From assembly GCA_022478985.1 (NCBI GenBank), contig JAKSZP010010605.1:62001-126000 (forward strand): a stretch of 64,000 nt of DNA. Reading direction: 5' to 3'. A program made the translations under genes and the position numbers. Source of the stretch: Massospora cicadina (taxonomy: Eukaryota; Entomophthoromycota; Entomophthoromycetes; Entomophthorales; Entomophthoraceae). Under the pieces are notes generated by a model. That model searched no databases. It saw nothing but the letters and a program-made list of their open reading frames with translations, and had not been told where the DNA came from. This document shows positions 1 through 56,399 of the stretch, piece after piece (position 1 is the first letter of the stretch; every line of letters begins with the position of its first letter).

Positions 1-294
1 CTCAACCACTCAAGAAAAAGATCCCCTTTCAATCCGCCATATGACTCTTTTATATCTCAGCTTCTCAAGCTGGATGCATCCTCAGCTTGGTAGTCTTTAA
101 TTCATTTTTCCTTTTCTAAAAACTCTTGTTTGTATCAAATATCAGCATAAATCCTCTTGATTCACCAAATGATCATCATTTTAAATGATTGTAATTTGTA
201 TACCTTTTTCCATAAATCTCGAGACTCATCTCAATTCCACCTCTAATCCATCAGTATGGGTAGCATATCATCCAGTCATATAAACTTCCTGACA
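1..294 (-). repeat. E1 LTR, downstream copy cut by window edge
   Basis: Left copy of the E1 LTR read on the minus strand. It starts TGTCAGGAAG at 294 and runs off the window. It aligns along its length with 721-1013 (for example both hold a CTGGATGCATCCTC-like block) and with 19696-20149 in the opposite orientation. Together with 535-1013 it brackets only 240 bp, so E1 is a miniature or internally deleted element. Confidence 0.75.
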
Positions 295-4529: not shown

Positions 4530-4839
4530 CATTGCAATCGAGGGTGTGGAGGAGGCTGAAGTTGAGGGCATCCTGGACTCCTGACAATCATGCTGATCAA
4601 TTCAGTATTTAGTTGCATGAAAAGGCTATCCGGCCTACAAGAACAGATGGTTTGGCATGCAGGACTGTGTCAACTTCTTGAAGCTTGTCAAAGCATTCCA
4701 TTATTTCCACCCAGATGCTTCCAGTTCTCCTCCAAAAATTTCCATACTAATGGCTATCAAGTTGCATAAGGCCCATAAGAATCTGGCCCTCGCTCAATTC
4801 CCTAGCAGCAGTGCCCCCCTTGACAAAAGGGAAGGTTAA
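4530..4839 (+). pseudogene. pol: E2 chromodomain and Pol C-terminus
   Basis: Chromodomain, which targets integration to modified histones in chromoviruses. Plus-strand landmarks: EEAEVEGILDS, SIQYLVAWKGYP, WFGMQDCVNFL and KAFHYFHPDAS, in canonical order. Stops occur before and after WKGYP. The last open part (4657-4839) ends with a TAA that directly abuts the polypurine tract and the 3' LTR. The same frame, with stops, continues into U3 as the conserved VDEQW motif. Confidence 0.8.
4825..4835 (+). other. E2 polypurine tract
   Basis: AAAAGGGAAGG lies four bases before the LTR start at 4840. It is the expected primer site for second-strand synthesis, and the counterpart in E3 is AAAAGGAGAAGAGGG. 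Confidence 0.7.
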
Positions 4840-6078
4840 TGTAAGACAGGGGGAGGCCCCTCCATTTGAATTGGAAGGTGTTTACTTTCCCATCAAAAAA
4901 AGGGTCCAAGAAGGGCAGCTGTCCTTCTCTTCTCACAGGGCAACTTCGCCTATGTGGTGGATGAGCAATGGGTAACAGCTCTCCATTTGAGGACACTGCC
5001 ACATGTCCCATATTAACTTTGGACAAATTAATACAGAGAATTAAGGGGATTTGTGCTGAGCTTTCAAAAAGTCAGCAATCTCATGGGATGAAAGGTTTGA
5101 ATAAAGTTGAGGGCAATGAGCCTTCATCATCAAGAGCTGACAGCACCAAATCATTGAAACAACGACTGATGGGCGTGTTCCTTCAATGAATAAAGTTCTT
5201 AATGTTGGATCTTTGGAAAAGCTCATTAATGGCATCAGGCCAATGGGAAAAGTTGCCGTCAGTTCTAACCTACACTGGAAGCATCAGAATAACCGTCTGA
5301 TATGCTTTTATTGGCCAAACGGACGCCAGAATGACTGGGTGTTGGAGGGTTTGACGCCCCAAACACATTCCCAACATCATAGGGCTTACCTTATGCGTGG
5401 TGGCCTTGGAGGTTCCTGCTTCCCATTGAGTGAGATGCCATCACGCTAGTCATTAAACTGAAGAAATATTAGCAATTTGCATTCTTTGGATGAACCAACA
5501 GCAATAAGGCCCTAGCTGACTCTTTCAAGTTGGTTCAAATTAAGTTTTTTTCTTCCCCCTTCCTCAAAGTTTACTGGGTTAGGTCAATTATTGAGGGCAC
5601 TAATCTCCGCTCTCCTACGCTATTTCCAATCAATTGTCTATTTAAGTTTAATAACTCACTGAGGAAATTGATTGTCAATTCTCTTTATTTTCAAATTAAT
5701 AAAATCTTCCCATGCTCAAGTTTATTTAACCAAGGTTGAAATTTTTTCTGCTCAACTCACTGTGACATCTGTAATGTGGCCCCAAGGCTAGCATATTTAC
5801 TGGGTCATCTCAGTCATATTCACTACAATGGTCTTTACTATAATCACTTGGTCCTACCACGTCAAGGCCTTTCTATATAATTTCCTGGTCACAAAACTCC
5901 CTACGTCCATTCCTATTATCCCTGGAGTTACAACAGCTTGATTATCAATGTGTTGTTTTTCTTATTTGCAGCACATCGGCACTCCATTGCTATTTATCTT
6001 CCACCTTACTCTAAAGTCATTCAAGTAATGCCCCTGGCATTATAGGGGCTTTTTGGGTCTTTTGAAACCTGACTGACA
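4840..6078 (+). repeat. E2 3' LTR (1239 bp)
   Basis: Begins TGTAAGACAG right after the E2 polypurine tract and ends CTGACTGACA. Start (TGTAAG) and end (CTGACA) match solo LTRs at 12690-14443, 44574-45732 and 53790-54799. U3 encodes NFAYVVDEQWVTALH at 4942-4986 followed by LIQRIKGICAELS (from about 5028). A block MRGGLGG near 5395 resembles MWGGLGG of the 45 kb solo LTR. Near the 3' end VMPLAL matches AMPLAFW of the 12.7 kb LTR. No 5' partner LTR is in the window. Confidence 0.75.
4936..5188 (+). pseudogene. U3-encoded VDERW-type domain of E2
   Basis: Reads QGNFAYVVDEQWVTALH, then LIQRIKGICAELS, in the same frame as the E2 chromodomain (both in frame 1). The motif recurs in nine other LTRs of the window. 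Function unknown. It is preceded by stops at 4837 and in U3, so this copy cannot be fused to Pol now. Confidence 0.6.
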
Positions 6079-14443: not shown

Positions 14444-15020
14444 CACTCAATGAAAAGGCAACGTTGATCAAAATCTCTATCTATATATTAGTTAAAGGAA
14501 TAACAGTTAAATAAACAAATAATCCACTCAGATATTAGGTCAGAACAAGATTACACCAAGGACGAAATAAAAATACTGACCTAAAACCTATTTCATTCAG
14601 GAATCAAGCTAAAATTTTGGATAACGTTGATGAACCTGAGAAATCAAAAAAACCAGGATCAAAAATTATGTTTAACTCAACTATAAATAATTTTAATATC
14701 TTCTGTATCAATATTAAAGGTTACAATAAATAAACCTCCTAGGATATGATGAGAGATAAATGATTGAGAATTCATACTTTAATGTTAAAAAAGTGTTAAT
14801 ATTGGAACTTATAGAAATCACTTATTGATCATGGGTGTTAGAATAAAGACTGATATGATAAACATAATAGATTCCCTAGAATCAATTATTCAAAACAGAA
14901 AAACATTGATGTGAAGAGATATTGGTTTAAATTAAATAAAATAAATACTAATTAATTTGATCTTTACTAATCTGCAAATGTATGTTCAAGTATCCTGTTC
15001 CTGACCTATGAAATTGAATA
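14444..15020. other. AT-rich flank of E3
   Basis: No coding frame. Before E3 inserted, this DNA was continuous with 21514 onward, as shown by the shared GAATA duplication. Confidence 0.5.
15016..15020 (+). other. E3 target-site duplication, left
   Basis: GAATA, identical to 21514-21518 on the other side of the element. Confidence 0.9.
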
Positions 15021-15908
15021 TGTAAAGAGAGTGCCTGTAACCCTTCCATTCCCTAAGAGGTGGTGCAAGATGTGCTATTACAACGCCAGGGACTAGTCAT
15101 TAGAATCATCATAAACAGGGCACCACAAAGGATGCTGGAGCCAAAGTAACCTAGTGCAAAGGTGTATAACCTGGTATAGGGTAGTTGATAACAAGTACAC
15201 AGCAACATCAGGGTGGACCTCATGGTGGAGACCATAACTAAGCGAAGATCTGTGCTGGAGAGTTTGGGTGCCTCAGTCTGAAATAAACCAAGAGGACCAA
15301 CGGTGCACTTGATCTTGTAGACAATTTTGTAAAAAAGAATGGCCATTGTTGTTAAAGACCTCCCCAAAGAGATCCATGCTTAGTTTCTCCTAAGGAACTA
15401 TAACAAAAAAACGTAAACTAATGGGAGTTTTAAAAAGAAAATTGACCCACAAGGAAGGCTGATCTCAAGGAAACATAACTAAATAATTAGGGGGAGTTAT
15501 CAATTGGTGGAAGTGGTACTAAACCTAAGTGCACCAATAAGTGCACGCTTCCATGAGCCTGGATACTATAGCTAGAGATTTCATGAACTCTAGTTATTGA
15601 TTGTAGGCATAGCTGAACCAATTTAGAAAATTCAAAAATTGAACAGGTTTTGAAACCCCATTCACTAAGCAACTGAATTGAACCGTTGTTATTGGTGATA
15701 TAGCTGGTGCATTTTAACAATCTTTCTGTAATGCAGTGGCAAGCATCATGAACATCTCCAGATCTTATCTGAGCATATCTCGCCTGCACCCAGAATTGAT
15801 CCAGGGTATGTTTGAGGTCAAGAAGGCCTTGTAATTTGACCTTTTTGGCCTACTGACTAGCTTTATCCTTGCAATTAATGCCCTCAATTATGTCATGGGG
15901 CCATGACA
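15021..15908 (-). repeat. E3 3' LTR
   Basis: Reads on the minus strand from TGTCATGGCCCCATGACA at 15908 to TTACA at 15021. U3 is largely open in the Pol frame (one TAG) and encodes LLDLKHTLDQFWVQARYAQI. The frame 15487-15789 ends about 40 bp before the inferred start of R. The second half holds a hydrophobic frame (15053-15367). Confidence 0.92.
15487..15908 (-). pseudogene. U3-encoded Pol extension of E3
   Basis: The chromodomain frame passes through the polypurine tract and enters U3 (KEKRVMSWPHDIIEG across the boundary). It continues with LLDLKHTLDQFWVQARYAQI and CHCITERLLKC to a stop at 15487. Two stops interrupt it: a TGA after the chromodomain and one TAG in U3, where the 5' LTR has a glutamate codon (TATGAG versus CAGTAG context). 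The motif matches the VDERW-type blocks of the other LTRs. A 3' U3 is part of the genomic RNA, so translation as a Pol tail is possible in principle. Confidence 0.55.
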
Positions 15909-15911
15909 TTA

Positions 15912-15926
15912 CCCTCTTCTCCTTTT
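15912..15926 (-). other. E3 polypurine tract
   Basis: Minus strand AAAAGGAGAAGAGGG, three bases before the 3' LTR start. A clean 15-nt purine run at the canonical position. Confidence 0.85.
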
Positions 15927-15989
15927 GAGGCTCCACCCCCTCCTGGGGATTTTTCCAAGAAAAAGTTATTGTGGGCTGAGGCTGGCTTC

Positions 15990-16230
15990 ATGGCGGCGAT
16001 GGCTTGCTTTGACAAAAATCCTGCAGCCTCCAAGAGATGCTCTTGAAAAACCTTAAAAGATCTTGGGCATTGGCGCATCCATGCACTGGTACCCAACTGT
16101 TCTCTGCTGCGTCAAATCCCTTCCAGGATACAAGATACTTAAGCCTTCTTCTTACTCAGCATGAGGCTATAATATCCTCCACTTCCCACTCTAGTGCCCC
16201 ATCCACGAGATAAGTCTCTGGAGTCTATGG
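15990..16230 (-). pseudogene. pol: E3 chromodomain
   Basis: Minus-strand landmarks: RRRLKYLVSWKGFDAAENSW, VPVHGCANAQDLLRFFK. This is the full beta-sheet and final helix of a chromodomain (YLVxWKGF...W.P...NA.DLL). It follows the integrase GPY-type segment (SIGPYHVVIKVSHTSYQLEV) and a frameshift near 16250. It probably steers integration to heterochromatin. The first strand (EVEDIxxSR) is only partly readable. Confidence 0.85.
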
Positions 16231-20620: not shown

Positions 20621-20622
20621 AA

Positions 20623-21513
20623 TGTAAGGAGAGTGTCTGTAACTCTCCCATTCCCTGAGAGGTGGTGCAAGATGCACCGCGACACCTCCATGGAATTAGT
20701 TGTTAGAAACATGGTAAACAATGCACTGCAAAGGATGCTGGAGCCAAAGTAGCCTAGTGTAAGGGTGTATAATGCATATAGAGTAGTTGGTAACAAGTAA
20801 ACAGAAACACAAGGGTGGCCCCCTGGGGGAGCCCATAACCACAAGTAAAGATCTGTTCTGGAGGGTTTGGGTGCCTCAGTCTGGAAGGTACTGAGGGGGC
20901 CCAACGGCACTTGATCTTGTAGAAAATATTTATAAATATAGAAAGGCCATTGTTGTTAAAGACCCCCCTATGGAGGTCCATGTAAAGGACACCTAAGGAA
21001 TCATAACAAAAAATGTAAACTAATGGGAATTTTTTATTAAGGAAGTTGACCAACAAAAGGTTGGTCAAGAGGTAACATAATTATACAATTGGGGGAAATC
21101 ATCAATGGTGGAAGTTGTGCTAAACCTAAGTGCAGCTATAAGTGCATGATTTCATTAGCCTGGGTACTATAGCTCAAGATTGCCCAAACTCAAGTCATTG
21201 ATTGTAGGCAAACCTACCAAATTTAGAAAATCTAAAAATTGAACATGTTTGAAAACAATCATTCACTAAGCAAATGAATTGAACCGCTGCTATTAATTAT
21301 ATAGCTGGTACATTTTAACACTCTTCCTGTAATGCAGTGGCAAGCATCACGAGCATCCCCATGTTCTTATCTGAGCATATCTCGCCTTCACCCAGCGTTG
21401 ATCCAAGATATGTTTGAGGTCAGGAAGGCCTTGCAATTTGACCTTTTTGGCCTCATAATGACAAGCTTTATCCTTGCAATTAGTGCCTTCAATTATGTCG
21501 TGAGGCCATGACA
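20623..21513 (-). repeat. E3 5' LTR
   Basis: Minus strand TGTCATGGCCTCACGACA at 21513 to CTTACA at 20623. U3 carries LPDLKHILDQRWVKARYAQI (about 21363-21424), a better preserved copy of the motif than in the 3' LTR. Contains the TATA box and inferred transcription start. Confidence 0.92.
21044..21085 (-). promoter_or_regulatory. E3 core promoter: TATA box and inferred start
   Basis: Minus strand TATAATTA at 21085-21078, then GTTGGTCAACT starting at 21054, which is 31 nt downstream and complements the primer-binding site. The segment TTGACCAACCTTTTGTTGGT around the start can fold as a hairpin. The 3' LTR copy is mutated here. Confidence 0.55.
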
Positions 21514-25598: not shown

Positions 25599-26394
25599 TG
25601 CATGGCAAACGCACAATACTGCACAGGTTAATTCTCTCCCTAAAGTTTCTAAGATCTTACTTTATCGCACAATCTCTGTCCCCTGACATTGCCTAACCCG
25701 CTGCATATTGTATAGAAGAGCTACTTGGAACTTAATTTACTGCAGTTTCTAGTATAGTAAAGGTCTTCGCCAGGAACAAAGGATTCTATCATATATGAAA
25801 AATAGGGAGTAAGAATTAGATTTAATAGTAAAAGTTTGTACTATTTAAAGTACCAGGAGTTTTCAGGATTATGATAAGTGATAGGCGCAAATAAAATGTG
25901 AAGGAGGAAGTAGACTAGGAATTTAGGAGTGTTGGCATAGTCCAGGATTGAGTTAGTCCAGGATTTATTAAATACTGGAATGAGATTAACACTGGTAACA
26001 CAGTTAAGTGTTTTTCATTAATTGCACTAGAAGCCAACATATAGTAAGGCATGATAGGTGACATAAAGTTGTTATTGGGGCAAATAGGAAAGTATAATTT
26101 ATCAAATAGAACTCGCTCCTTAATAACAAAATGATGTTAAATTGCTTATGCATTTCTATCTATCATTAACTAATGGAGCAATAGTGAGGTAATTTATTAT
26201 TGATTCATTTCTCATGAAGTTGACATTCTTAAGGATATTGCTCAGTGGTATAAAATCTAATGTTAACAAATTTTGGGCTTTAGGCTAAATATATAGCATT
26301 AATTGATAGATTATAGCAATAGATCATCATAAATAATTAGTATTTTATAAACTCTAAGGTTGAGGCTTCACCCTAACTAGGGTATATCTCAACA
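25599..26394. repeat. E5 LTR, left
   Basis: Shares with 35476-36274 the blocks GCCAGGAACAA, GTGATAGGC, CATAGTCCAGG, GTTATTGGGGC and AACTAG near the end. Confidence 0.8.
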
Positions 26395-35475: not shown

Positions 35476-36274
35476 TGTACACCAAACGCACACTACTGAG
35501 TAGGGAAAAATCCTCTGGTATGTCTATAATTTTCCTCAATTACACAATCTCTGTAACCTGAAAAGGTCATATCCACTGATTATGCATAGAAAGCTGCACA
35601 ATATTAGATTTCCTACAGTTTTTGGTATAACTAAACTCTATGCCAGGAACAACAACTTTTATAATATATAAAAAGAGGTAATAAGGCGTTCTTATCAGTA
35701 TAAGTTTGGTAGTATTTAGAGTAACAGGAGAAAATCAAGAAAATAATGAGTGATAGGCATATACCACATGTGAAGTAGGAATTAAACTTAGGTATATAGG
35801 AGGTGATGTCATAGTCCAGGTTAGGATTAGATCATGACTCATCATCCAAAGATGGACTGAGAGGTAAGAATTGGCAACATAGTCATGTGGTATTCATTAT
35901 CTGCCATTAAAAAGTCAGCAGATAGCAAAACATAATGGGTGGCATAAGGGTGTTATTGGGGCGAATAGGAGAGTTAATGTTGAATAGTCCTGGTTCCTTG
36001 ATATTAAGATGATACTAAGCTGGTTATATAAATTCTCCCTATCTTATTTGCCAGTGGAGCAATAACGGAGCAATTTTATCAGAATTTGTTCAGTTTTGAA
36101 TTTGGTGTTTTAAGGTAAATTGTTTAGTAAGTAAAAATTTAATGTTATTAATTATTTTAGGCTTTAAGCCCAATAAAGTATTGGTCAAAGAATTATAAAT
36201 ATAAATAGATTTATATCAATAACTTTTTGTAAACCTAAACTCAAGGCTCACCCAAACTAGTGCAAATCACAACA
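35476..36274. repeat. E5 LTR, right
   Basis: Partner of 25599-26394. It ends AACA at 36274, after which the E4 RT frame resumes. Confidence 0.8.
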
Positions 36275-39536: not shown

Positions 39537-40574
39537 TCTCACCGCCATAGGTTCTGCTCACTTAACTATGGTGATTTTAAACTTGGGGCATCAGAAAGGG
39601 GTAATCTGTTACACAGATCTGACACTAACCAGCTAGGCTAAGACTTCCTTAGAGAGCTGTTAAATTGACACTTGCATGTCAACTGTGTGTCTTCTTTATG
39701 ATTAAACTTTGTACGTTGAAATCTTCCCTAGACCCAACGAAGCTTATCTCAACCTCTTTCCTAACAAGCCTAACCTTAAAAGGAGCCTTCTCAAAATGTG
39801 TGTCTTCAACTGTAGTGCACTCAAAACTGGGTACTTGCAGTCACTACTTTTCACTTATTTCCAATTAAAGTGAAAAACCAAATGAAGGACAACTTAAGAC
39901 TCTGAAAATAGACTAGTTATTTAAAATAAAAAATTAGTATTTTTATGATAAATACTAATAACTTGGGATGCAAAAGTTTATTGAGTAATAAATTATGTAG
40001 TGGAGCTGAAAAATATTGAATCTTCTTCAAAAACTTCAGGCGTAGTCTCTTCTTTAATTGATTTCTCTCTTGGGCACTTATTTTCTCAAGGTCCTGAATT
40101 CATGCACTATGGCGTTGTGTGGAGCCCGTGGTATCAGGGTCATCAGCTTCGTGGCTCCTGTGCGCTTTGGCGGAGTCCAAATTTACATCATCATCGGTGG
40201 AAATAATTTCCTAGTTGCTTGATGGCACCAATTTTCTTTTGTTTCAATTGTTTTCCTTTTTGGTTAACTGTTCTGCACCTAAATTGTTCTTTTCATTCTT
40301 GACGTTATTAAATTACTATTTCCTTTTCAAGAGCATATCTCATCTAAGATTTCATCATTGCTGGTTTGCATCTCATGGATGATTGGATTGTTTGGCATTT
40401 TGTCCATGACATTATCGCTAGCACCATTTTCACAGCCAATTATATTTGGAATATTACCATTTTTTGGAGCTATACTCATATTTGTGTTAATAATTCTCAC
40501 TATTTGATTAGATTTTCTGGATTCTGCCAGAGGTTGAGAATTTACTAATTTTGCAGTGCGCCAAATCTGTGACG
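39537..40574 (-). repeat. E6 3' LTR
   Basis: Minus strand begins with a mutated TGTC (CGTCACAGATTTGGCGC) at 40574 and ends GGCGGTGAGA. Nearly collinear with 46796-47835; both hold GGCGTAGTCTCTTCT and TGGAGCCCGTGGTATCAGGG on the plus strand. Ends are TG...GA rather than TG...CA in both copies. Confidence 0.88.
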
Positions 40575-46795: not shown

Positions 46796-47835
46796 TCTCG
46801 CCGCCCTGGATTCTTATCGCTTAACTCTGGGGATTTTACCTTGGGGCGTTGAGAGGGGTAATCTATTGCAAAGATCTGACACTAACCAGCTAGATTCAAA
46901 CTTCCTGAGAGAGCTGTTAACTTGACACTTGCATGCCAACTGTGTGGCTTCTTTACAATTAAACCTGTGTACGTTAGAATCTTCCCTTGACCCAACGGAG
47001 CTTATCTCAACCTCTTTCCTTGCAAGCATAACCTTACAAGGAGTCCTTCTCAAAATGTGTGTCTTCAACTGTAGTGCACTCAAAACTGGGTACTTGCAGT
47101 CACTACTTTTCACTTATTTCCAATTAAAGTGAAAAGCCAAATGAAGGATAACTTAAGATTCTGAAAATAGACTATTTATTTAAAATAATATTAGTATTTT
47201 TATGATAAATACTAATAACTTGGGATGCAAAAGTTTATTGAGTAATAAATTAAATAGTGGAGCTGAAAAATATTGAATCTTCTTCAAAAACTTCAGGCGT
47301 AGTCTCTTCTCTAATTGATTTCTCTCTTGGGCACTTATTTTCTCAAGGTCCTGAATTCATGCACTATGGCGTTGTGTGGAGCCCGTGGTATCAGGGTCAT
47401 CAGCTTCGTGGCTCCTGTGCGCTTTGGTGGAGTCCAAATTTTCATCATCATCGGTGGAAATAACTTCCTAGTTGCTTGATGGCACCAATTTTCTTTTGTT
47501 TCAATTGATTTACTTTTTGGTGAACTGTTCTGCACCTAAACTGTTATTTTTTTCTTATTAACGAAACTCAAATGAATATTTTTTTCAGGAGTATATCTCA
47601 TTTGATGTTTCTTCATTGCTGGTTTGCATCTCATGGATGATTGGATTGTTTGGCATTTTTTCCATGACATTATCGCTATCACCATTTTCACAGCCAATTA
47701 AATTTTGGAATATTACCATTTTTTGGAGCTAGACTCATTTTTGTGTTAATGATTCTCACTATTTGATTAGATTTTCCTCAATTCTACCTGAGGTTGAGAA
47801 ATGTACCAATTTTGCAGTGCGCCAAATCCACGACA
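46796..47835 (-). repeat. E6 5' LTR
   Basis: Minus strand TGTCGTGGATTTGGCGC at 47835 to GGCGGCGAGA at 46796. Partner of 39537-40574, with the same noncanonical GA end. Confidence 0.88.
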
Positions 47836-48100
47836 CATGCATTGTCCATGTCCTCCTTAAATAAAAATAGCGAAGGTTGAGCCCCTCCTGGCTAAAAACA
47901 CCAGTTTTTGAAGTTGAGAAGACCTTGGACTCACAAAGAGTCAAGCGGCAGGTAAACTATCTAATGTCATGGAAAAAATTAACTAGCATACAAGAACAGC
48001 TGGGTTTCTTACCAAAGTTGCGTCAACTGCTTTGAGCTGATTCCAGAGTTCCATTCTAGGAAATTAAAGCACCCTCGCTTTCCATACATAAGACAATTGC
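47836..48100 (+). pseudogene. pol: E4 chromodomain
   Basis: Resumes the E4 Pol exactly after the E6 insertion: HALSMSSLNKNSEG, then in another frame VFEVEKTLDSQRVKRQVNYL and MSWKKLTSIQEQLGFLPKL, then CVNCFELIPEFHSRKLKHPR. This is a complete chromodomain (EVExILDS, YLxxWK, ELIxEFH). It ends at the E7 LTR (48101). The reading frame across 39536/47836 is continuous once one CATGC is removed. Confidence 0.8.
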
Positions 48101-49398
48101 TGTCATGGAACCAGCTTATAAAGCTAAGACCAGCCTTCCAGTCTTGGTGAGTAGACATATATAACACAAACCATAATACTAACTTATAACTGTCACTACG
48201 ACATTGTATTTAATCAAAAGCAGAACTGCTGAGAGATAAAAATTGTCAATCACTGTTACTAGCATAATCGCATGTAACCACACAGTTGCAAGAGTAGCGG
48301 CCAAGGATCCCGCGGCATTTGTTTCCTTAGGCGCCTCAGGGGGTTCAAAATACGCTCTGGGAACATAAGGGTAAAATTTGTGGAAGCATTGTGAAACTTA
48401 GCACCTAGTGGGATTCACCTCAAGGACCAGAGCCACATCATGACGCCATAAAGCATTAACAAGGGGCTTAACCCTCAATTGACCGACATAACAATATCCC
48501 CTTTCAAGTAGGGAGTGTAAAAGAGTAGTAAGTATGGCCACTATAGCTCATTCATTTTAAAGACCAGGAAACATGGCACTTGAAAAGAACGCGGTTAATA
48601 GATGGCAAAAAAAGTAATTTTGAAATTTTCCACGCTCGGATTTGTTTATTAAACAAAGGTTCAAAATTAACTAACAACAGTACCTGTGAAGAGACTTTTG
48701 TATTAAGTGCTGGGGCTTGGGAATAAAAAATCTGCATTATTCATTGTAAATGCAATCATTCTTACTCCAGCGGATTGACATTTAAAATATTCATGATGAC
48801 AAATCAGCCAAAACTGGCAGCTGAATTAATCTCAAAAATTTTACTAAATTTATCCACCCAAAGCGATTTTGCATGGCCGATCATTGATGATTATCTGGTG
48901 GACAACAGGTAGCAACAATGGTCAGGATAAGTATGGGAGGCACATTTATTTATAAAAGGGGTTTATTGCGCCCAAACCTGTTGGGGATGAGCTCACCTTT
49001 ATCATTGAAGAAGAAACAAAAATGGTGGGCTTCGAACAAAAGCATACAGTGGACAATTAGGTTATGTTGGGAACCAATTTTATCAATATTAAAAAACCCC
49101 AAATTGGGGTCAGAAGTTACTGGGGGAGAGGGGCGGACACAAAACTATCACTTGCAATGGTTTCTTGCTCCCGCCACCTCAGTCACACATGCCCCAATTT
49201 TCTGCATCAACTCCTGGATGGTGAAAAGGGGAGATAAAGGAGCTATCTTTACCAGGTAGGCTGTCACCCACCTCTCATCTACCATAAGGGCTAAAAGCCC
49301 TTGAAAACAAGAGGGACAGCTGCCTTTCTTACCACTTTTTTTGTCCTGAAAGAAGCCCCACGCAGTTGAGGTGCAGGGGGTGCTCCCTAGGACTTTAG
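48101..49398 (-). repeat. E7 3' LTR
   Basis: Aligned with 54963-56399 along its length (GTTTATTAAACAAAGG, CTGGGGCTTG, TAAAATCTGCATTA, CACAAACCATAATACT). Its U3 encodes LMVDERWVTAYLVKI and its last codons read STHQDWKAGLSFISWFHD. Confidence 0.82.
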
Positions 49399-49552
49399 TT
49401 AACCTAACCTCCTTGGACAAGAGGAGAATCCCAAATGAGGACTTGGTGAGGATGACGTTCTTGTTTTCAGCAACTTGATGGCCAAGATGTGTGGAAATTT
49501 TTTGTGGGGGGCGAGGAGTGTTGAGGTGCAAGGTGTGGAAGGCCTCCACCAA
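49148..49552 (-). pseudogene. pol: E7 Pol C-terminus fused to U3-encoded domain
   Basis: A single uninterrupted 134-codon frame. It begins in the last chromodomain helix (VEAFHTLHLNTPRPP), crosses the LTR boundary at 49398 (VRLTKVLGS), and continues in U3 with WGFFQDKKSGKKGSCP, ALMVDERWVTAYLVKI and LMQKIGACVTEVAG. This is the only copy with no stop between chromodomain and U3 motif, direct evidence that the two can be one protein. Domain function unknown. Confidence 0.7.
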
Positions 49553-49720
49553 TTCATCACAATGGGCACAATCACAGGCGCTGACCCAATAAGCTTATAT
49601 GCTGGAAACCTCTTCTAAGCCAAGAGGTACTGTACTAAATGGTGAGATTTATAAAAGGTCAAAATATCATTGACTTTATCCTCCTCTGATCCCTCCACCT
49701 GGATTGTCTCTGGCACCGCT
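49500..49720 (-). pseudogene. pol: E7 chromodomain
   Basis: Minus frames: SEEDKVNDILTFYKSHHLVQ, YLLAWRGF, and DCAHCDELVEAFHTLHL. Order and spacing are those of a chromodomain; two stops or shifts in the middle. Confidence 0.7.
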
Positions 49721-53789: not shown

Positions 53790-54799
53790 TGTAAGTCCCG
53801 AGGAACGTCCTCTGGGCGTTGATTGGGCCATCTTTCTATTCCTGAGCAAGAAAGTACCAAAGAGGATGGCCATACCCCTCATTACTCAGGGCGATCTCGC
53901 TCACATGGTAGATGAGCGCTAGAAAATAGTTCTTCAGCTTTGGATCCCACTTCTGGTACTTGCACTCTCCTCATCAGAACTGTTATGAGTAATTAGTAAA
54001 ATCTGCGCTGAGATCACCAAAATGGAACTGATTGCAACTAATTCAAGCGGCAATCAGCTGGATACTCAGATTTCAAATGGTCAAAAAGGTATGAAGGCTG
54101 AGCTATTGGCTGGAATGCCCGATGGTTGCAATTTGGTTTACACGATGATCAAAAATCTTCCTTCCTCCCAAATCTGTCAGGCATCACCCCCAATGGGCAG
54201 CTTCCTGCCAGAAAATTGGGCGTTGCACCTGATGCAATACCACTGACCGCAACTTGGCTCATCACCAAATTTTGCGATGTTGGCCCCCAGGGAACTAACC
54301 CTCCTATTCCCAAATAGTTCACCTCTTAGGTTGAACTGACCGCATTTGGCCTGCCGCCAAACTTAGCAATGTCAGTTCCTAGGGAACTAACCCGCCCATT
54401 TACAAATAGTTCACCACTTAGGTTGAACTGACCAAAACTTGGCTCATCACCAAATTTTTCAATGTTGGTCCCCAGGGAACTAACTCGTCCATTCCCAAAT
54501 AGTTCACCACTTAGGTCAAACTTGCAGAACCTGATCCCAGCTTATTTTCCCCAAAATTGATGACTATTTATCTGGGCGCATTGCACTGAGAAAATTGTTG
54601 GTCAATTCTCTTCCCCTAAGTTTTCCAATAAAAACACCCTATCCAAAATTTCCGTTTTTATCTGTTGAGAATTAAGATCCCTTCCAGTTCCATTCATAAT
54701 ATACCAGCAGCAGTGCCCTGGCATTCTGGTTTGCCACTTGGATGCTCTGGCATCAGGGCTGGCAGGACAGTATATTTTTTACTTGCCGTCTGTCTGACA
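53790..54799 (+). repeat. Solo LTR sL3 (1010 bp), antisense inside E7
   Basis: Plus strand TGTAAGTCCC...GTCTGACA, flanked by CTCAT (53785-53789) and CTCCT (54800-54804), one mismatch. Close relative of sL2. U3 encodes LAHMVDER then a stop, followed by ISKICAEITKMELI and TQISNGQKGMKAELLAGM, also present in sL2. Contains three tandem 91-bp repeats. Confidence 0.82.
54251..54522 (+). repeat. Three tandem 91-bp units in sL3
   Basis: Units at about 54251-54341, 54342-54432 and 54433-54522. Each holds CCCAGGGAACTAAC-like and AAATAGTTCACC blocks. Translated, each unit gives a 30-residue repeat like LGSSPNFSMLVPRELTRPFP. sL2 carries one clear unit and a faint second. Confidence 0.85.
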
Positions 54800-54962
54800 C
54801 TCCTCCTCCACTGCACAGAAGCACCTGACAAATGTACCAACTGACCATACAAAAAGACTAAACTAAGCATCAATTTAAGGTTCATTTAATAAAACAGAAC
54901 AATTGCATCACTTACTTACAGAAGAAGGGTGGAGATGGAAGAAACTAGTGTTCAGTCAATTA
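54800..54962 (-). other. E7 leader and primer-binding region
   Basis: Next to the 5' LTR the minus strand reads TAATTGACTGAACACTAG, with no TGG. A related sequence AACTGACTGACAAC is in the LTR near 55675, at the place homologous to the E3 self-priming site. Partial match only (TGACTGA). Confidence 0.4.
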
Positions 54963-56399
54963 TGTCATGGACCCAGCTAACTAAGATAAGATCAACCGCC
55001 AGTCTGGGTTAGTGGACACCCAAAACACAAACCATAATACTGGGGTTATAACTGTCCATATAATTTGATATTCATTGGGGAGCAACTGAGGGACGGCAAC
55101 TTTGCAATCAATGTTACTATCATTTCACCTGTAATCACATAGTTGCACAAGTAGCAGCTACAGATTCCGCAACAGTTGTTTCCTTAGTCACCCCTTGGCT
55201 CCAAAATCCACTCTGTGAACATGAGGGTTGAATGCATGGAAGGATTGCAAAACTTTTTACCAGGTGGAAATCACCTAAAGGACCAGAGCCGCATAATGAC
55301 GTCATAAAGCATACAAAATGAGAGTCAGCTGCAAGTGACCACCATAATGATACCCCCATTCAAGTAAGGTTGGTAACAGAGTCTTATGTATGACCATTAT
55401 AGCCCAGTTGTATTGAAACCAGAAAACATTTCACCTGACAAGAACGCGGCTAACAAATAGCTAAATCTTTTAATATTGAATTTTTTTATGCGCAGATTTG
55501 TTTATTAAAGTAAAAGAGGCAGGTCAACTTTGGGGATAAATATACCACGCTGAGTTTTCTAAGTCTGTGCTGGTTTCAAACCTGTTTAAATTAAAACCTA
55601 ACCCAGAGTAGAGCAAGAACCACCCCGCTATGCTGCCACTCCTCAGATTTGTTTATTAAACAAAGGAAAAAACTGACTGACAACAGCTCCTGTGGGGATC
55701 TTTTGCCTTATGTTCTGGGGCTTGAAGAATATAAAATCTGCATTACTTAATGTAGTTGTAATAACGCTCAATTCTGGGCGGATCAATACTCCTTAGTATT
55801 TCTGACGCTGAATTGGTCTCAACCTGGCCAGTCACAGTAGTCTTTAATTTTTCCAGTAAATTTGTCCTCCCAAAACAATTTCACTTGGCGCACAATGATG
55901 ATTTGTTTGGCAGATGGCTGGTTGCACCCAAGACCTGGTAGGTATGGGTTGTTTTAATGCATATCAAAGGGTTTATTAAATTTTAACCTGTTGCGGATGG
56001 GCTCTAATCTCTTGTCAAGGAGAAAAAAATTGGTAGGGTTTCAAATTTGAGTTTATATTGGACGGTTAGTTTTTCTGAACACCAATTTATCAATACTATT
56101 GAACACCATATTGGGTTAGTTTTTTGGGAAGATGAGTGGGCACAAACTTTTCACTTGCAATGTTCTCTTCCTGCCGCCACCTCCAGACTCACACCCCTAT
56201 CATCTGCCTCAACTCCTGGGTGGTGAGAAGGGTAGGTAAGTGAGAAATCTCAAGTGGTTAAGCATCATCTACCTCTTGTCTACCACATGGGCTCAAATAC
56301 TCTGGAAAGGAGAAGGATGGCCACCTTCTTAACCCCCTTTTTGTCCTGAACAGAAACTCCCCATGTTTGAGGTACAGGGGGTGCTCCACAGGACTTACA
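54963..56399 (-). repeat. E7 5' LTR (1437 bp)
   Basis: Minus strand TGTAAGTCCTGTGGAGC at 56399 to CCATGACA at 54963. U3 motif is worn (AHVVDKR between stops, about 56265-56300). The 3' end encodes FWVSTNPDWRLILS. Confidence 0.82.

What the first reader, a model, noticed from the sequence alone, without database searches (positions are those of the whole stretch)
49148..49552. Pol reading frame continues from the chromodomain through the LTR boundary into a U3-encoded domain
In E7 one open frame of 134 codons runs from the last chromodomain helix (VEAFHTLHL), across the polypurine tract and LTR edge at 49398, into U3 where it encodes ALMVDERWVTAYLVKI and LMQKIGACVTEVAG. In E2 (4657-4986) and E3 (15487-16140) the same frame relation holds, with one to three stops. 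Because U3 of the 3' LTR is part of the genomic RNA, it could encode a C-terminal extension of Pol, a layout comparable to accessory genes of some animal retroviruses that lie in U3. I know of no description of this for fungal chromoviruses.
Basis: partly seen in the sequence, partly recalled or inferred. Interest (0 to 1): 0.88.

Follow-up and report, generated by a model that had tools for sequence, protein, structure and literature searches.

The report
Retrotransposon gene running into its LTR
In a giant, repeat-filled genome that is probably a fungus, a group of jumping genes lets its main enzyme gene run on into the repeat at its end, which codes for an extra conserved piece of protein; plants have a related layout, but this piece of protein was not found elsewhere.

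Summary
The open frame exists (minus strand, 49594-49148; LTR edge 49398). In E7 itself it is patched together by decay: indels before the edge, a lost TAA at LTR nt 3-5, two one-base deletions in U3. Yet the proposed layout is real in E7's family. Counted by alignment columns, the chromodomain frame reaches the LTR edge in frame (158 columns) and stays open 77 codons into U3, to a shared stop at LTR nt 233 (36 of 61 rows). One related copy (L127), unedited, has the same layout and stop position, with a 92%-identical LTR piece 5.9 kb upstream. Against it, 61 family rows show median pS 0.81 and pN 0.40 over U3 in this frame, about equal values in the other two. In E3's larger family U3 encodes a related domain in another frame: Pol stops at LTR nt 11-16 and an ORF of about 143 codons begins at an ATG spanning the edge (codon-position bias p=1e-4). 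The two U3 peptides match as profiles (E=8e-5); DNA profiles do not. Plant CRM and some Reina chromoviruses also extend Pol into the 3' LTR; I found no report of it in fungi. Function is inferred. Host: probably Massospora cicadina.

The parts
49148..49594 (-). E7 stop-to-stop open frame crossing the LTR edge; a product of private indels and a lost stop
48091..49398 (-). E7 3' LTR
   Evidence: repeat of 54954-56396; LTR-only copies begin at nt 4
54954..56399 (-). E7 5' LTR (starts TGTAAG at 56399)
49552..49680 (-). E7 chromodomain end; 129 family columns where E7 has 128 bases
   Evidence: the family copy L011 gives only a weak Pfam Chromo match, E 0.028, below cut-off
49399..49551 (-). Pol tail over the polypurine tract; 158 family columns from 49552 to the edge, 154 bases in E7
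49394..49396 (-). AAA where 52 of 60 family rows have a stop (LTR nt 3-5); not in the family Pol frame
49190..49306 (-). Part of the U3-encoded domain that E7 still reads in the family frame (VDERWV motif)
15020..15908 (-). E3 3' LTR (pair 20622-21513)
15991..16155 (-). E3 chromodomain piece
   Evidence: Pfam Chromo, E 8.3e-6, above cut-off
15893..15895 (-). E3-family Pol stop, LTR nt 14-16 (51 of 57 rows)
15487..15910 (-). E3 U3 frame, ATG spanning the LTR edge; one internal stop in E3's own copy
4840..5020 (+). E2 U3 start, with VVDEQWVTA at 4954

Best explanation
E7 is an old, broken copy of a Ty3/Gypsy chromovirus lineage whose Pol polyprotein did not end before the LTR. SHOWN by sequence: in the family frame the chromodomain is followed by a short tail encoded over the polypurine tract, the frame crosses the LTR edge (codon AA|T) and continues 77 codons into U3 to a shared stop at LTR nt 233; U3 evolved as protein-coding sequence in this frame; a second, larger family (E3) keeps a related U3 domain in another layout (Pol stop at LTR nt 11-16, separate frame with an ATG spanning the edge). 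INFERRED: because the 3' LTR's U3 is part of the genomic RNA, the ribosome reads on and adds a small C-terminal module to integrase behind the chromodomain, most likely for choosing or holding target chromatin, as proposed for the CR motif of plant CRM elements; in E3 the module is made by reinitiation at the edge ATG, a +1 frameshift, or splicing.
For: Column counts 129 + 158 to the edge and 121 to the motif keep one frame. No stop shared by 30% of rows from nt -220 to 232; TAA at 233 in 36 of 61 rows. Shared variants in U3 nt 2-232 fall 39/21/50 on codon positions 1/2/3 (59 rows, p=0.0029), singletons 46/56/45, flat beyond 232. L124 open for 138 codons across the edge, unedited. 150 scored of 55,598 candidates match that frame on both sides of the edge; 95 of 150 without a stop by my hand count, open frames up to 640 aa. 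L127: LTR pair confirmed, stop TGA at LTR nt 233; pS 0.81, pN 0.40 against 61 rows in frame, 0.49/0.50 and 0.53/0.48 out of frame. E3 family: positions 102/81/143 (p=1.1e-4), DNA-selected rows alone 40/32/71 (p=1.4e-4). Cross-family profile match E 8.2e-5, none by DNA.
Against: No transcript, peptide or activity. One column in the A-run of U3 is held by just 39 of 61 rows and must be counted for the frame; 19 of 61 rows have CAA, not TAA, at nt 233. A stop-free U3 of E7's length arises in 4.9% of shuffles. The codon-position test is not significant in the E7-family Pol tail, nt -280..1. The shared-versus-singleton N/S test fails its control in E7 (odds ratios 0.37-0.52 in all frames beyond the ORF), and one of three frames of LTR 239-370 also shows pS 0.82 / pN 0.47. 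The 61 comparisons share one copy, L127. The 12 differences between L127's LTR and its partner piece fall 6/5/1 on positions 1/2/3, no third-position excess, which is expected of changes after insertion but does not help. The frame relation differs in E3.
Confidence: 0.85

Rival explanations
1. Only decay: E7's frame is open because stops were lost by chance, and U3 is non-coding as in ordinary LTRs.
For: E7 lost a stop that 52 of 60 rows have and carries private indels; a stop-free frame of E7's U3 length is not very rare (4.9% of shuffles).
Against: True of E7's own frame, but not of the families: codon-position bias in two families, pS far above pN in one frame only, unedited copies open across the edge, matching peptides in two families without DNA similarity.
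Confidence: 0.05
2. U3 encodes a protein, but always as a separate accessory ORF, as in E3's family; the joined frame in E7's family is secondary or not used.
For: In E3's family Pol ends at LTR nt 11-16 (51 of 57 rows at nt 14) and the U3 frame has an ATG across the edge in 28 of 40 rows.
Against: E7-family rows have no shared ATG in the U3 frame between nt -220 and 240, and the frame is joined to the chromodomain by column counts and in L124 and L127.
Confidence: 0.1
3. The conserved U3 stretch is a DNA or RNA control element that happens to look coding.
For: It lies at a similar distance from the LTR edge in both families (motif codon at LTR nt 111 and 122 by column counts).
Against: The families share residues but use different codons, with synonymous variety inside the E3 family (V: GTG 27, GTT 16, GTA 12); DNA profiles do not match; third positions vary most.
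Confidence: 0.04

Closest known systems
Plant CRM chromoviruses, group A (PMC3059260, abstract and passages read)
   Different: There the LTR encodes the CR motif, which takes the place of the chromodomain. Here a Pfam chromodomain lies wholly before the polypurine tract and the U3 part is an additional domain with no Pfam match; LTRs start TGTAA or TGTCA, not TGATG.
Reina-clade Bingo1-4 and 7 of beet (PMC3605345, passages read)
   Same: Chromodomain upstream of the polypurine tract and the gag-pol ORF running on into the LTR: the nearest layout found.
   Different: Plant elements; no separate conserved U3 domain is mentioned in the passages seen; not compared by sequence here.
U3 genes of animal retroviruses (MMTV sag, lentiviral nef; recalled, no call)
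   Same: A reading frame inside U3; the E3 layout resembles this.
   Different: Different element family; no sequence relation was tested or is claimed; in E7's family the frame is joined to Pol.

Membership tests
Chromovirus (Ty3/Gypsy with chromodomain at the integrase C-terminus) | Chromodomain behind integrase, in Pol next to the 3' LTR | tested here: met
   E3: rve E 5.3e-4 and SH3_Tf2-1 E 3.9e-5 (both below Pfam cut-off), Chromo E 8.3e-6 (above); L070 Chromo E 1.9e-10. E7 family: L011 Chromo only 0.028.
Chromovirus (Ty3/Gypsy with chromodomain at the integrase C-terminus) | Reverse-transcriptase tree placing it among chromoviruses | not tested
   Pol is broken in the window copies; no tree was built.
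[quoted passage not shown]
   E7 family and L127.
Plant CRM clade, group A | CR motif in place of a chromodomain, encoded in the LTR | tested here: not met
   A Pfam chromodomain lies upstream of the LTR; U3 peptides gave no credible Pfam match. The CR motif itself was not compared.
Plant CRM clade, group A | LTR ends TGATG ... T/CATCA | tested here: not met
   LTR starts are TGTAA (E7 family) and TGTCA (E3 family); the other end was not examined.
Plant CRM clade, group A | Concentrated at centromeres | not testable with these tools
   Contigs without chromosome assignment.

The most novel reading that the evidence does not exclude
A previously undescribed protein domain, encoded inside the LTR and kept by selection in two chromovirus families under two expression layouts (in-frame Pol extension in E7's family, overlapping separate ORF in E3's), serves integrase or the element as a second targeting or accessory module behind the chromodomain, in a lineage that helped inflate a fungal genome beyond a gigabase.
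Probability: 0.6. Interest if true: 0.78.

Novelty: new variant of a known kind. Interest (0 to 1): 0.7.

Why it matters
An LTR is normally read as control sequence only. Here one stretch serves as U3 and as protein-coding sequence, copied anew into both LTRs at each round of replication. That makes LTRs of large fungal genomes worth scanning for coding frames, gives a testable candidate for how these chromoviruses choose or hold their sites, and may explain stray gene predictions such as the Massospora protein fragment hit.

Tried and rejected
First reading, rejected: from the commonest row length (157 nt) I concluded that the E7 family's Pol ends at TAA at LTR nt 3-5 (notes). Column occupancy gave 158 and placed that TAA outside the Pol frame.

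The shared-versus-singleton N/S test was kept for E3 only; in E7 its control failed. In the E3 set one of three control frames in LTR 433-560 gave p=0.049, a non-coding frame of U3 itself gave p=0.015, and an earlier version with E3 as reference gave a control frame at p=0.0004. With L030 or L060 as reference copy the E7 bias vanished (p=0.93) and the E3 bias weakened to p=0.009, because those copies carry indels of their own; majority-occupied columns were used instead. In the L127 comparison one control frame of LTR 239-370 also showed pS 0.82 / pN 0.47 (39 pairs).

let-7 search for host type: 0 matches, but it rang in none of the control genomes either, so it says nothing. Pfam and PDB: nothing credible for the U3 domain. 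Protein searches with the E3 U3 peptide alone and with the E7-family U3 set found nothing. A fold of window:15490-15849 was ordered and had not come back at the last look. E2's own family search did not complete.

Full report
What was given.

Place. The window is G000:C9152:62001-126000 of a 1,469,884,898-base assembly in 16,968 contigs. A profile of four E3-type U3 peptides finds one protein at E <= 1 in the 5.8-billion-sequence database, a 79-aa fragment named hypothetical protein L0F63_002272 of Massospora cicadina (E 3.7e-5). One short cox1 match was found; that it looks fungal is recall only. The eLife paper on Entomophthorales (PMC11105155, passages read) reports that Ty3 elements make up 56.8% of the M. 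cicadina genome, with a burst near divergence 20, which fits copies that are 70-80% alike. The host is thus probably M. cicadina; this is an inference.

E7 itself. The frame is there and the edge is right. But E7 is heavily decayed: its Pol is broken into many frames. The E7 set has 61 rows: E7, its 5' LTR, 25 internal and 14 LTR-type copies (39 of the 39 other places, which scored 40 of 1,473 candidates) and 20 of 26 new places (my count; letters were limited). E7 reads AAA where 52 of 60 rows have a stop at LTR nt 3-5, and lacks two single bases in U3 that 60 and 58 of 61 rows have. So E7's unbroken frame is an accident.

The family. Lengths of single copies mislead, because most rows have private indels: 15 of 46 internal rows have 157 nt, 11 have 158, the rest other lengths. 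Column occupancy does not mislead: between the chromodomain codon at 49552 and the LTR edge there are 158 columns held by at least half of 46 rows and none between 20% and 85%; upstream, 129 columns link this codon to the chromodomain proper. The codon at the edge is therefore AA|T, and the TAA at LTR nt 3-5 lies in another frame. In the carried-through frame, stops shared by 30% or more of rows are absent from nt -220 to 232; at nt 233 TAA stands in 36 of 61 rows and CAA in 19. Of the columns between edge and motif two are held by 51 and 39 of 61 rows; the second lies in an A-run and must be counted for the frame to hold. Over nt -157..232 the 45 internal rows (E7 left out) carry 0-7 stops in this frame (0 in 6 rows, 3 or fewer in 37), against 4-12 and 2-12 in the other two.

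Selection, E7 family. Variants shared by six or more rows, CpG changes left out, window copies left out (59 rows): positions 1/2/3 = 39/21/50 over U3 nt 2-232 (p=0.0029; 59/52/81, p=0.028, with four or more rows), singletons 46/56/45; nt 233-420 and 421-640 flat. The same measure is not significant over nt -280..1 of this alignment, but in Pol further upstream (25 copies, 895 columns, four or more rows) one phase holds 165 shared variants against 118 and 91 (my sums).

Unedited copies. L124 is open for 138 codons from the chromodomain end to U3, the edge lying at residue 75. Searching the genome with it, 150 of 55,598 candidates were scored; each listed row spans at least residues 5-124 in one frame, 95 of 150 have no stop inside (hand count; the query's own place included), and open frames reach 640 aa. 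These are chosen by score, so they do not estimate a rate, and in only one of them was the LTR edge checked. For that one I fetched the 3' end and a piece upstream (L127, L128): the match between them begins at the edge and is 92% over 158 bases, 5,908 bases apart, and the Pol frame crosses the edge and stops with TGA at LTR nt 233 after 77 codons in U3, the position of the shared stop in E7's family. L127 against the 61 rows over U3: median pS 0.81, pN 0.40, dS saturated in 55 of 61; wrong frames 0.49/0.50 and 0.53/0.48; the Pol tail in frame 0.78/0.30 (46 pairs); in LTR 239-370 the three frames give 0.56/0.48, 0.63/0.48 and 0.82/0.47. The 12 differences between L127 and its partner LTR fall 6/5/1 on codon positions.

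E3 family. 57 rows: E3, 27 DNA-selected copies (of 39 other places; 40 scored of 8,970 candidates) and 29 found by the U3 peptide (150 scored of 43,925; loci were cut for 30, one of them E3). Pol reaches the edge over 263 columns (36 rows, one intermediate column) and stops at LTR nt 14-16 (51 of 57 rows), in 18 of 57 also at nt 11. The U3 frame has codons from LTR nt 3, +1 to Pol, with ATG across the edge in 28 of 40 rows. It has no shared stop from nt -78 to 320, a mixed codon at 321 (TGA 21, CAA 21, others) and a shared stop at 432 (49 of 54). Stops per 100 codons over nt 1-431: 1.6 against 6.0 and 9.9 in the other frames, shuffles 5.0; some frame wholly stop-free in 0.16% of shuffles. Positions 1/2/3 of variants shared by four or more rows, nt 1-480: 102/81/143 (p=1.1e-4), DNA-selected rows alone 40/32/71 (p=1.4e-4), singletons 90/94/88. 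N/S shared against singleton: odds ratio 0.32 (p=1e-7), DNA-selected 0.45 (p=4e-4), other frames 0.59-0.92 (the 0.59 at p=0.015).

One domain. The two U3 frames give peptides that match as profiles: E=8.2e-5 from nine unedited open stretches; with all rows P=3.4e-4 in the predicted frame pair, the other eight pairs 0.042 or above, score 28.2 against a maximum of 22.7 in 150 column permutations. Earlier runs with the window copies as reference gave 0.0024 and 0.0012. DNA profiles gave no hit below E=8. The shared core is seen in single copies as DLKHTLDQRWVQA (E3 type) and NLAHVVDERWVTA (E7 type). E2 has VVDEQWVTA.

Mechanism. Shown: coding, frame and position. Inferred: the 3' U3 is translated from genomic RNA as the end of Pol in E7-type elements, placing a module behind the chromodomain; a targeting role is by analogy with the CR motif (PMC3059260). 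For E3-type elements the way of translation is open.

Known or new. Plant CRM group A and some Reina elements extend Pol into the 3' LTR (PMC3059260, PMC3605345; passages read). My paper searches (open-licence papers only, listings seen) showed no report of this for fungal chromoviruses, and no credible Pfam, PDB or other protein relative was found apart from the Massospora fragment. Passages found by term in the survey of fungal LTR elements (PMC3248453) mention none. I file it as a new variant of a known kind.

Noticed in passing
39537-40567 and 46796-47828: The youngest-looking LTR pair of the window (91% over 1,039 bases); a 158-codon frame (40803-40327, minus) crosses the inner edge near 40567. 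By eye its integrase end lacks a chromodomain.
   Followed up: no
E3 family, column at window 16237: 23 of 36 rows lack one base that E3 and others have just upstream of the chromodomain, which would shift Pol; perhaps a subfamily mobilised in trans.
   Followed up: no
25668-26394 and 35543-36274: Direct repeats 9.9 kb apart, 68% alike, perhaps the LTRs of another old element.
   Followed up: no
54242-54522: Three tandem copies of about 93 bases inside E7 near its 5' LTR.
   Followed up: no
E3 family U3, LTR nt 321: Codon split between CAA (21) and TGA (21) among rows: a truncated subfamily, or recurrent change.
   Followed up: partly
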